DNA from: a virus
IMG/VR virus record: IMGVR_UViG_3300032296_002111
Span: 1 to 64,000 of that record
Reading direction: 5' to 3' (one strand)
Length of the DNA stretch: 64,000 nt
Positions 3,962 through 63,640 of this stretch are shown piece by piece. The notes under the pieces were generated by a model. The model had not been told where the DNA came from. It saw only the letters and a list, made by a program, of their open reading frames with translations, and did not search any database. The translations under genes were made by a program, and so were the position numbers. Within the stretch, counting starts at the first letter, position 1. Each line of letters begins with the position of its first letter.

Positions 3962-4356
3962 TAGACTTAGTAATTGATTTTGACTCACAGGAGGACAAAG
4001 CCAAGCTGTTCGGCCTCCTGAAGCACCTTAAAGGACGCCACGCGGTAGGGATAAAGAAAGACCGAAGAGGGCGTTCAAGCAATCAATCAAAATACTACTG
4101 GGGAGTTGTGCTTGGATATTTTGGGGAAGAGACTGGATATTCAAAGGAAGAGAGTCATCAAATTTTGGGCAGAATGTTCCTCCGTTACGACAAACAAATG
4201 CCCGATGGGACAACCGAATCATTTGTGCGTTCCACAACGTCCCTGAACACGCTGGAATTTGAAGAGTATTTGGAAAAGATACGCATATTTGCCCTTTCGG
4301 AACTGGCAACGTACATTCCGCTTCCGAACGAGATAGTATATGAAGCGAACCGCTAA
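3958..4356 (+). CDS. NinB-like recombination accessory protein
   Basis: A 132-residue protein with the pattern of phage NinB/YbcN proteins: an N-terminal alpha/beta part with KKDRRGRSSNQSKYYWG, a central helix pair, and SFVRSTTSLNTLEFEEYL followed by a helix and IPLPNE near the C-terminus. NinB proteins of lambdoid phages bind DNA and assist homologous recombination. It sits between replication genes and an HNH nuclease, the usual context. Confidence 0.75.
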   Translation: MIDLVIDFDSQEDKAKLFGLLKHLKGRHAVGIKKDRRGRSSNQSKYYWGVVLGYFGEETGYSKEESHQILGRMFLRYDKQMPDGTTESFVRSTTSLNTLEFEEYLEKIRIFALSELATYIPLPNEIVYEANR

Positions 4357-5423: not shown

Positions 5424-5675
5424 ATGTATATGGAAGAAGAACAGAAACAATTTCTAAAGGCCGTTAAATACCACGCTATTGCGTTTTTTGCGGCCTTTCT
5501 CGGCTTGTACATTATAGCCGCATTCGTAGCATGGGAATGGAGAATGAAAGAATGGTGGTGGAGCATCCGCTTCTTCAACCTGGCCTTTTCCGTCTATTTG
5601 TCATATATGTATGCCCCTTTGTTTTATAAAAAAGAAGAAGAAATTTTAAATGACGAATATTATGGAACACCCTAA
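5424..5675 (+). CDS. Small membrane protein, 83 aa
   Basis: Two hydrophobic stretches, residues about 17-36 (IAFFAAFLGLYIIAAFVAW) and about 48-66, are separated by a Trp-rich basic segment (RMKEWWWSIR). The tail is acidic. ATG codons are at 5424 and 5430. It is probably an inner-membrane protein of unknown role. The next gene starts inside its last codons, so the two are translationally coupled. Confidence 0.65.
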   Translation: MYMEEEQKQFLKAVKYHAIAFFAAFLGLYIIAAFVAWEWRMKEWWWSIRFFNLAFSVYLSYMYAPLFYKKEEEILNDEYYGTP

Positions 5676-58777: not shown

Positions 58778-58874
58778 CAGTCGGGGCGAGAGTCGAACTC
58801 GCATTGCGCATGAAACATCTGAATGTGTAATACATTCATAGTTTCACGGTGCATTACCTTTATGCTACCCGACT
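58778..58874 (-). tRNA. tRNA-like cloverleaf with elongated anticodon arm
   Basis: Minus strand, 97 nt, no encoded CCA. A 7-bp acceptor AGTCGGG/CCCGACT, TA, a D-arm GCAT-AAAGGTA-ATGC, and a canonical T-arm GCGAG-TTCGACT-CTCGC are all present with discriminator G. The anticodon region is abnormal: the stem continues as CGTGAAAC/GTTTCATG, then an internal loop, then GAATG/CATTC around TATTACA. No U33 is found before a triplet, so no amino acid can be assigned. It may be a degenerate or intron-bearing tRNA or a mimic. Confidence 0.6.
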
Positions 58875-58927
58875 ATGTTCCGGTCTTTCCCGGATGTCAT
58901 TTATTTTATATTTTAACTTATTGAATA

Positions 58928-61975: not shown

Positions 61976-62203
61976 TTAAATATTTTCCCATCCTTCGAGG
62001 GCTTCCAAGGGCGTACCAATTGGCCGCAATCCGTAGGGTTCTGCATCAAGGTAGTAATCGAATGTAAAGCCTGCTGATTCCGTTTCTGTAAGCATTTCTG
62101 CCAGTTCTGAATAACTAAGGCCGTTTGCTAATTCGTAGCGGTTGAATATAGCCTGTAATGCTTCAGGCCATGTTTCAAAAGGTGTTTCGAATAAGTCTTT
62201 CAT
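61976..62203 (-). CDS. Hypothetical acidic protein, 75 aa
   Basis: Start at ATG 62203 (MKDLFETPFETWPEAL), because the longer frame would run through the tRNA-like element at 62251-62298. Acidic, helical (SYSELAEMLTETESAGF). No family recognised. Confidence 0.6.
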   Translation of the reverse strand: MKDLFETPFETWPEALQAIFNRYELANGLSYSELAEMLTETESAGFTFDYYLDAEPYGLRPIGTPLEALEGWENI

Positions 62204-62250
62204 GTTGCGTTCTGTTCGGCTTACTTCACCCGTTCCCGTGTTTAATTGTT

Positions 62251-62298
62251 TGGAGGCCGGAGGAAGTTGCGAACCTCCCAAAGTGCATATTTCCGGCC
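62251..62298 (-). ncRNA. 48-nt tRNA-like minihelix ending in CCA
   Basis: Minus strand: acceptor GGCCGGA (62298-62292), a 13-nt linker, T-arm GGAGG-TTCGCAA-CTTCC, acceptor TCCGGCC (62261-62255), discriminator T, then CCA (62253-62251). The acceptor is fully paired. D-arm and anticodon arm are absent; the linker contains GCA. U73 and a GCA triplet are tRNA-Cys hallmarks. It lies in the gap between two genes. No T-tract follows, so it is not a terminator. Confidence 0.55.
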
Positions 62299-62306
62299 TA
62301 GTGGAA

Positions 62307-62588
62307 TTAGTAGCTTAACGCTTCCTCAGCATCAAAGTATGTTTCATGAAATGTTTCTTCGCCGTCCTCAAAGTTTGTAGTAATGTACGTTACAGGACGT
62401 CCAAAGCAAGAAGCAATACAGATGCCGTTTTCAAGTTCTATACATACGTAGCCTGTTTGGTTATTGTAGCCAATGTGGGCTATTTCTTCGCCTCTCATAC
62501 TTGCGCTATTATTGTACGCTTGCAGGCAAAGGGTGAAAGAGTGAAGGTCTGACGTTCCCAACGTGTTGATAAATTGTGCTGTGTTCAT
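62307..62588 (-). CDS. Hypothetical protein, 93 aa
   Basis: First gene below the promoter at 62619. Mixed alpha/beta with TSDLHSFTLCLQAYNNSASM, YNNQTGYVCIELENGIC and an acidic C-terminus (EDGEETFHETYFDAEEALSY). No family recognised. Leader ACAATTAAACATTTACAAAC shared with other arm genes. Confidence 0.6.
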   Translation of the reverse strand: MNTAQFINTLGTSDLHSFTLCLQAYNNSASMRGEEIAHIGYNNQTGYVCIELENGICIASCFGRPVTYITTNFEDGEETFHETYFDAEEALSY

Positions 62589-62659: not shown

Positions 62660-63640
62660 TTCTAATTTGGCAAAAAGGGGCGTAACACTACGAAAAAGGC
62701 AGAAAAAAAGTTTACACTTTCGAAAGGTGCGTAAGGGAAAAGGAGTCAAATACCTGAAACGTTCTTTCGTGCGCATAGGTGCGGGAAAGGGTTTCCCGAA
62801 AGGAATGAAGGAAAGCGAAGGAAGGAAGGGAGGGAAGGCCGTCCCTTTGTTGCGTGGCTTTTCCCTTTTCGGGAAAGGGTTTCGTCCTTTCGTTCCGCCT
62901 TGTTGCGTTTCGGTTTCGTCCTTTCGTTCCGTTCCTTTCGTTTCGTTCCTTTCGTCCTTTCGTCCGTCCGTTTCGGTTTGGGTTTCGCTGGTGCTTCCGG
63001 TTACGTTCAGGATGCGTCCGAAAGGGGTTTCTGTTTCCGTCCTGTGTTGCCTTCCTTTCGCTACGTTACGTTACGCTCAGGGCAGCTCAGGAAACGACCC
63101 CACGGGGTTAAGGATAAACAGTTTCGGAAGAGGACACGAGGCGGGGGTGGGCAGGGGGGCCATCCCCACTTTGTCGTTTCGCATCACTTTCAGGGGGCCT
63201 ACTTTTCTTTCCGCTGTGCCTCCTTCCCTTCGCTACCTCATTTCATTCGTCCCTCGTTCCTTGTGCTTACAAAAGTGGCCTCGTTCCCTCCTTGCCTCCC
63301 TCGTTCCTCGTGTCGTTCCTGCCGTGTTCCTCGTGACGTTCCACAAAATGTGTTACGCAGAGTGTGGAATGTGGGACGTTATGGGAAGTTCCTGTGTAAA
63401 AAGTGGTAAAAAATTACCGAATTGGTAAAATATTTCCGTTCTGTGTGGTAGAGGGGGACGTTATGGTTTCGTTCCTCGTGTAACAAGAAGTGTACGTTAA
63501 AGGGGCGTTCTTGGGGCTTTACGCCTTGGGATATATATAAGGAGAGGATTTTTAAAAGTGCTATAATTAATTGATGTGTAGAGGGTTGAGGTGCTTCACT
63601 TACACACATTTATTGTGCTAAAATTGTCAAAAAATTACAA
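62660..63640. other. Low-complexity, strand-biased control region; candidate origin
   Basis: About 1 kb without a convincing gene. A purine-rich run (62784-62840, GAAAGGAATGAAGGAAAGCG and similar) is followed by a long pyrimidine-rich run of TTTCGT/CGTTCC units (62868-62960, later 63180-63340). Inverted segments GGGAAAGGGTTTCCC and CCCTTTTCGGGAAAGGG lie at the switch. Overlapping frames here are compositional artefacts. It sits between divergent promoters, beside a possible initiator gene, as expected of a replication origin or regulatory hub. Confidence 0.5.

What the first reader, a model, noticed from the sequence alone, without database searches (positions are those of the whole stretch)
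62251..62298. 48-nt tRNA-Cys-like minihelix with encoded CCA
Acceptor and T-arm are perfect, the discriminator is T, and CCA is encoded, but D- and anticodon arms are missing. A GCA triplet in the linker and U73 are tRNA-Cys identity elements. Such a minimal tRNA mimic could be aminoacylated, bind CysRS or EF-Tu, act as a decoy, or be an attachment-site relic.
Basis: partly seen in the sequence, partly recalled or inferred. Interest (0 to 1): 0.68.

Follow-up and report, generated by a model that had tools for sequence, protein, structure and literature searches.

The report
tRNA-like minihelix between phage genes
A short RNA shaped like the top half of a tRNA sits between two early genes of a probable Bacteroidota phage, is conserved in its relatives with matched stem changes, and may mark where the long viral message is cut, though no experiment yet shows this.

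Summary
On the minus strand, 62298-62251 reads as a 7-bp acceptor stem, a 13-nt linker, a 5-bp T-stem, a 7-nt TTCGCAA loop, U73 and CCA. It is the only such structure in the window (0.017 expected).

It is a conserved structured RNA. Six related phage contigs carry it with an invariant outer stem and linker and a covarying inner stem. It lies on the sense strand of the early operon, mostly 7-9 nt after a stop codon, although the flanking genes change.

The Cys reading fails. Five of the six relatives keep U73, GCA and CCA, but the T-loop is lost in all six and L018's copy lacks U73 and CCA. L018 also has a paralogue with the same outer stem and downstream leader, a canonical TTCGAGT loop and CCCA, plus further tRNA-like intercistronic structures. 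The window has a second tRNA-like RNA at 58874-58778 with its anticodon arm replaced by a long hairpin (Rfam tRNA, 41 bits).

Most likely it works like the AT1 model substrate: a tRNA-top-half mimic cut by RNase P and a 3' nuclease to separate early cistrons (confidence 0.42; processing not shown). Rivals: trans-acting tRNA mimic, nut/put-like or SAS-like regulator, degraded tRNA.

The parts
62251..62298 (-). whole tRNA-like minihelix with encoded CCA
   Evidence: conserved in L004, L005, L006, L008, L016, L018
62292..62298 (-). acceptor stem, 5' strand GGCCGGA
   Evidence: pairs 7/7 with 62255-62261; invariant in all members
62279..62291 (-). single-stranded linker AATATGCACTTTG in place of the D and anticodon arms; identical in all six relatives; holds an ATG at +10 (possible small ORF MHFG...)
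62262..62278 (-). inner (T-arm-like) hairpin GGAGG-TTCGCAA-CTTCC; stem covaries among relatives, loop does not stay T-loop-like
62255..62261 (-). acceptor stem, 3' strand TCCGGCC
62251..62254 (-). U73 plus encoded CCA
   Evidence: TCCA kept in five of six relatives, ACAA in L018 copy 1
62239..62251 (-). leader motif AAACAATTAAACA, starting at the A of CCA; four copies in the window (0.3 expected), two of them just downstream of TTTG-TACATTTG promoters
62214..62239 (-). conserved leader ACGGGAACGGG..GCCGAAC before the next start codon; also follows two other tRNA-like elements in L018
62619..62651 (-). Bacteroidota-type promoter (TTTG-N21-TACATTTG) of the leftward early operon
62307..62588 (-). 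upstream early gene, 93 aa, no known domain; its stop lies 8 nt before the element
61976..62203 (-). downstream early gene, 75 aa; its ATG lies 47 nt after CCA; replaced by unrelated genes in relatives
58778..58874 (-). second tRNA-like RNA in the same leftward gene cluster: acceptor, D- and T-arms canonical, anticodon arm replaced by a long hairpin, no CCA
   Evidence: Rfam RF00005 41.4 bits, E 6.9e-8; folding z -4.9
58880..58893 (-). small hairpin CCGGGAAAGACCGG 5 nt before the second tRNA-like RNA; a similar GCCCGGAAAGACGGGC precedes tRNA-like RNAs in L035, L041 and Bacteroides phage BS-TP2

Best explanation
It is a cis-acting RNA element in the early polycistronic mRNA that imitates the acceptor/T-arm half of a tRNA, and it works as a processing ('punctuation') site. 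Host RNase P would cut just 5' of GGCCGGA, leaving the upstream message with a 7-9 nt tail after its stop codon. A tRNA 3'-end nuclease would cut after the helix or CCA, leaving the downstream message with the standard 5' leader that the phage otherwise places just behind its promoters. Shown: the structure, its conservation with covariation, the strand, the intercistronic position, the near-constant stop-codon spacing, the shared leader, and related tRNA-like elements in the same operons. Inferred: transcription through it, recognition by RNase P or 3' nucleases, and any effect on expression.
For: (1) The outer stem and linker are invariant in the six relatives while, with the L018 paralogue added, four of six inner-stem pairs change on both sides (0 of 500 shuffles reach the covariation score), across phages whose proteins are only 54-66% identical (window vs L018). 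(2) Always sense strand; 7-9 nt after a stop codon in the window, L004, L008 and four sites of L018, 13 nt in L005 (in L016 the stop 7 nt upstream ends a remnant of the 149-aa gene), while the flanking genes differ. (3) L018 has a paralogue with the same 7-bp acceptor, a canonical TTCGAGT loop, CCCA and the same leader, and a third element TCCCATA..TCCGG-TTCGATT-CCGGA-TATGGGA-GCCA followed by the same leader type. [quoted passage not shown] (5) The leader right after CCA (AAACAATTAAACA) also lies just after two TTTG-TACATTTG promoters, and the CGGGAACGGG..GCCGAAC leader lies just after a TATATTTG promoter in L126: sequences normally at mRNA 5' ends follow the helix.
Against: The T-loop is lost in all six relatives (6-nt GTCRTA loop), and L018 copy 1 has no CCA. 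Replacing the T-loop with tetraloops reduces RNase P cleavage and shifts its site (PMC11143913), and the described RNase P contact uses RCCA (PMC12710915) where this has U or C before CCA. The invariant linker sequence is not needed for RNase P recognition and suggests another partner. Only four distinct hairpins plus one paralogue are known. No RNA-seq or biochemistry exists, and the host is inferred only from promoter motifs.
Confidence: 0.42

Rival explanations
1. It is a trans-acting, non-decoding tRNA mimic. After excision the RNA engages a tRNA-handling host protein (synthetase, EF-Tu, CCA-adding enzyme, or a tRNA-targeting defence nuclease or toxin) as substrate or decoy.
For: The phage group carries several unrelated tRNA-like RNAs that keep the acceptor/T elbow but lose or replace the anticodon arm: window 58874-58778, G003/G004/L047 with a 4-nt ATGA loop whose stem covaries, L055 and BS-TP2. 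CCA is encoded in several. No ordinary decoding tRNA was found in the sequences searched from these phages.
Against: The near-fixed spacing to the upstream stop codon and the shared leader point to a cis role. T-loop, discriminator and CCA vary between members, which a specific tRNA-binding target should not tolerate.
Confidence: 0.24
2. It is a cis-regulatory RNA not read as a tRNA: an antitermination element like lambda nut or HK022 put, or a translation-linked start-associated element like the ESAS of cluster K mycobacteriophages.
For: Early in the operon, sense strand, invariant single-stranded linker (UGCACUUUG resembles boxA UGCUCUUUA at 7 of 9 positions, by eye), gene-independent, followed by a leader repeated at several starts.
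Against: The canonical T-loop and CCA of the L018 paralogue and its other tRNA-like elements are not explained. The boxA likeness is weak and was not tested against Bacteroidota boxA.
Confidence: 0.2
3. It is a decaying tRNA gene that lost its D and anticodon arms.
For: Odd tRNAs and T-arm fragments occur in relatives (G003).
Against: Stem pairing is kept by compensatory changes and the linker is identical across all six relatives; decay would not do this.
Confidence: 0.06
4. The conserved thing is a small ORF starting at the ATG in the linker (MHFG...), with the hairpin as a by-product.
For: ATG and MHFG conserved; in the window a 1-nt loop deletion is offset by a later 1-nt insertion so the ORF still ends at the same TGA.
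Against: Residues 5-13 are not conserved, all codon changes in L018 are non-synonymous, while base pairing is kept.
Confidence: 0.05

Closest known systems
AT1 and pMini model substrates of RNase P (acceptor stem + T-stem/loop + CCA hairpins)
   Same: Same architecture: 7-bp acceptor stacked on a T-stem/loop, single-stranded join on the 5' side, 3' CCA.
   Different: Those are synthetic; this is natural, intercistronic, has a conserved 13-nt linker, pyrimidine at 73, and its relatives lose the T-loop. Cleavage not shown.
tRNA punctuation of mitochondrial polycistronic transcripts
   Same: tRNA-shaped RNAs between genes of one transcript, abutting the coding sequences.
   Different: Mitochondrial ones are mostly decoding tRNAs; here there is no anticodon arm.
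Viral tRNA-like structures (TYMV and TMV 3' ends)
   Same: Viral RNA imitating the acceptor/T half of a tRNA, ending in CCA; these are RNase P substrates (PMC12710915).
   Different: Not a genome 3' end, DNA phage, no acceptor pseudoknot of that type.
Extended start-associated sequences (ESAS) of cluster K mycobacteriophages
   Same: Phage intergenic inverted repeat followed by a conserved leader next to gene starts (PMC3203893).
   Different: ESAS are 17-bp imperfect repeats with a 13-bp SAS in many copies and no tRNA geometry; here one copy in the window and several different tRNA-like forms in L018.
HK022 put and lambda nut antitermination RNAs
   Same: Hairpin RNA early in an early operon, gene-independent.
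   Different: No sequence or structural match tested; tRNA features not expected.

Membership tests
tRNA (decoding) | anticodon and D arms (full cloverleaf) | tested here: not met
   13-nt linker only; ARAGORN 0, Rfam below threshold
tRNA-like structure / tRNA-top-half mimic | 7-bp acceptor stacked on 5-bp T-stem with 7-nt TTC loop and NCCA 3' end | tested here: met
   for the window copy; L018 copy 2 also, with one T-stem bulge
tRNA-like structure / tRNA-top-half mimic | these features conserved across the family | tested here: inconclusive
   stems conserved with covariation; T-loop lost in all six relatives, CCA lost in one
tRNA-Cys mimic | U73 and GCA identity elements conserved | tested here: not met
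   kept in window, L004, L005, L006, L008, L016 together with the whole linker; A73 in L018 copy 1; C73 or G73 and no GCA in its paralogues
RNase P substrate | cleavage 5' of the acceptor stem by RNase P | not testable with these tools
   architecture only; needs an assay
Attachment site at a tRNA 3' end | integrase in the phage and identity to a host tRNA 3' end | tested here: not met
   no PF00589 in five records; 20-nt 5' core absent from 84,980 genomes (host tRNA-Cys 3' end itself not searched)
ESAS/SAS of cluster K mycobacteriophages | 17-bp inverted repeat plus 13-bp GGGATAGGAGCCC-type SAS | tested here: not met
   different sequence and architecture; analogy only
nut/put antitermination RNA | boxA/boxB or put double hairpin and terminator read-through | not tested
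   only a visual likeness of the linker to boxA

The most novel reading that the evidence does not exclude
A group of Bacteroidota phages uses a whole set of non-decoding tRNA-like RNAs (minihelices in early operons, cloverleafs with a deleted or rebuilt anticodon arm) as natural tRNA-scaffold modules, either to have host tRNA-processing enzymes cut their polycistronic messages or as stable decoys. Ordinary tRNA finders miss or mislabel most of them.
Probability: 0.33. Interest if true: 0.76.

Novelty: new variant of a known kind. Interest (0 to 1): 0.57.

Why it matters
Natural RNAs that match the classic minimal RNase P substrate are, to my knowledge, rare. If these are cut, phages use host tRNA maturation enzymes to divide early messages, a bacterial-virus counterpart of mitochondrial tRNA punctuation. 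If they act in trans, they are candidate decoys for tRNA-targeting enzymes. Either way they form a class of phage RNA that ARAGORN and default Rfam thresholds mostly miss, testable in an isolate: Bacteroides phage BS-TP2 carries a related unannotated cloverleaf.

Tried and rejected
Rfam at gathering and relaxed thresholds for the element: only chance-level hits. A generic stem-linker-hairpin scan of relatives without the element: nothing conserved in the same place. Covariance model R1 over 88 loci: only the element-bearing group. Loosened DNA patterns: no new members. INPHARED blastn for the locus and for the L018 region: no match. Exact genome scan with the 20-nt core: none. Leader scan: one further relevant case, L126; the other new hits look like chance matches inside unrelated sequence. 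Neighbouring proteins: no informative domains. Attachment-site idea: no integrase domain found. Literature searches for phage tRNA mimics, tRNA punctuation in phages and tRNA-scaffold RNAs: no paper describing this. I first read the loss of the T-loop as ending the tRNA reading; the L018 paralogues reversed that.

Full report
Observation. On the minus strand 62298-62251 reads GGCCGGA-AATATGCACTTTG-GGAGG-TTCGCAA-CTTCC-TCCGGCC-T-CCA. The T-stem has one G-U pair and the T-loop has C where tRNAs have A58. A scan for a perfect 7-bp acceptor, 5-bp T-stem, TTC loop and CCA finds this site only, against 0.017 expected per window in simulated sequence. The folding z-score is modest (-2.6). In real phage DNA a looser form occurs about 0.16 times per 100 kb (2 in 1.27 Mb), against 3 in 134 kb of this phage and relative G001. 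So the geometry alone is unusual but not conclusive.

Setting. The window is part of a 67,879-bp IMG/VR virus record. The element lies in a leftward early operon whose promoter, TTTG-N21-TACATTTG at 62651-62619, is of the Bacteroidota type (six such sites in the window, 1.6 expected). The Bacteroidota host is an inference from these motifs. The element starts 8 nt after the stop of a 93-aa gene and ends 47 nt before the ATG of a 75-aa gene. Neither protein has an informative known domain.

Conservation. The upstream gene's relative L002/L004 led to the first homologue. An exact scan with AATATGCACTTTGGGA then gave L005, L006, L008, L016 and L018. The outer stem and linker are identical in all. 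The inner stem is GGAATT/AATTCC, GGAGCC/GGTTCC or GGAGGT/ACTTCC. With the L018 paralogue added, four of six inner pairs change on both sides and no shuffle of 500 reaches the covariation score. Sequences are few and related, so this is strong but not overwhelming. A covariance model built from four of them finds no further members in 88 related loci; even phages 60-67% identical in the nearby SSB-like protein lack it. In L018 the protein identity to the window is about 54-66%, yet the first 23 nt of the element are identical.

Position. In every case the element is on the sense strand near the start of the early operon. Upstream and downstream genes differ from phage to phage: the same 149-aa gene lies upstream in L008 and downstream in L018. 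The distance from the stop codon to the first acceptor base is 7-9 nt at the window, L004, L008 and four L018 sites, and 13 nt in L005. In L016 the stop 7 nt upstream ends a 24-codon remnant of that 149-aa gene (read from the gap printed). This places the helix near the edge of a ribosome stopping on the upstream gene (inference).

Is it tRNA-like? The six relatives argue against a T-loop: their loop is GTCRTA with a 6-bp stem, and L018 copy 1 ends in ACAA rather than TCCA. But L018 has a second copy 540 nt on with the same acceptor GGCCGGA/TCCGGCC, linker AAAGGAAAGAG, a canonical TTCGAGT loop, CCCA, and the same downstream leader ACGGGAACGGGTG..GCCGAAC. A third, TCCCATA..TCCGG-TTCGATT-CCGGA-TATGGGA-GCCA, is again followed by that leader type, and a fourth minihelix follows 1.5 kb on. 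The folding z-scores of copies 2 and 3 are unremarkable (-0.6 and -0.8), so for those two the argument rests on tRNA-specific geometry, loop and CCA, not on stability. The window itself has a second tRNA-like RNA at 58874-58778 that Rfam's tRNA model accepts (41.4 bits, cut-off 29, when the stretch is searched alone) with canonical acceptor, D- and T-arms but a long hairpin region instead of the anticodon arm and no CCA. Relatives G003, G004 and L047 have cloverleafs with a 4-nt ATGA loop where the anticodon loop should be; the stem differs compatibly (CTGGG/CCCGG against CCAAG/CTTGG). No ordinary decoding tRNA was found (ARAGORN reports only 'tRNA-???' for three of the odd ones). So a tRNA acceptor/T elbow without a usable anticodon recurs in these phages.

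How it most likely works. The minihelix has the architecture of AT1, the acceptor/T-stem/T-loop hairpin that RNase P RNA cuts at the canonical site (PMC11143913). Natural tRNA-like structures with CCA are RNase P substrates too (PMC12710915). The sequence after CCA is a leader (AAACAATTAAACA) that elsewhere in the window lies just behind two promoters. In L126 the CGGGAACGGG..GCCGAAC leader follows a TATATTTG promoter directly. The simplest reading is that the element creates new mRNA ends: RNase P on its 5' side, a 3' nuclease after the helix. The main weaknesses are the lost T-loop in relatives, U or C at 73, and an invariant linker that RNase P would not need. Hence 0.42, with a trans-acting mimic at 0.24 and a nut/put- or ESAS-like regulator at 0.20.

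The Cys idea. U73 and GCA are kept in the copies that are nearly identical anyway, but L018 copy 1 has A73 and the other L018 elements have C73 or G73 without GCA. There is no evidence for Cys identity. No tyrosine integrase domain was found in five records, which speaks against an attachment-site relic.

Limits. No expression data; small number of distinct sequences; incomplete contigs; metagenome collection not scanned; viral scans used exact patterns; the host tRNA-Cys 3' end was not compared directly.

Noticed in passing
window 58778-58874 (-): Unannotated tRNA-like RNA (Rfam tRNA 41.4 bits) between the SSB-like and Gp157 genes, with its anticodon arm replaced by a long hairpin and preceded by a CCGGGAAAGACCGG hairpin; missed by ARAGORN.
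   Followed up: partly
L114:3269-3314, 3983-4047, 5470-5516 (G001): Three further tRNA-like intercistronic structures in one early operon of the relative phage; the first two encode CCA, the third does not.
   Followed up: partly
L117:16762-16832, L119:16779-16849, L047:16478-16548: Cloverleaf tRNAs with a 4-nt ATGA loop in place of the anticodon loop; ARAGORN calls them tRNA-???.
   Followed up: partly
L142:2001-2160 (Bacteroides phage BS-TP2, PQ571275): Unannotated Leu-like cloverleaf with an enlarged anticodon/variable region, preceded by GCCCGGAAAGACGGGC, between the DUF2303 and NinG genes.
   Followed up: partly
L141:1066-1570 (crAss-like phage cr50_1, MT774375): Record annotates a tmRNA whose 3' part is a tRNA-like cloverleaf with a 6-nt anticodon loop; the tmRNA call may be spurious.
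   Followed up: no
window 62230-62289 (-): ATG in the linker opens a 20-codon ORF (MHFG..TIKHGNG); in the window a 1-nt deletion in the hairpin is offset by a later 1-nt insertion so the ORF ends at the same stop; in L005 and L016 it runs in frame into the next gene.
   Followed up: partly
window 59604, 61321, 62239, 62598 (-): Start-associated repeat AAACAATTAAACA, four copies against 0.3 expected, two of them just downstream of TTTG-TACATTTG promoters.
   Followed up: partly
window 62750-63350: About 600 bp of low-complexity, pyrimidine-rich non-coding sequence with many TTTCGTCC/TTCCTTTCG repeats between the divergent early genes.
   Followed up: no
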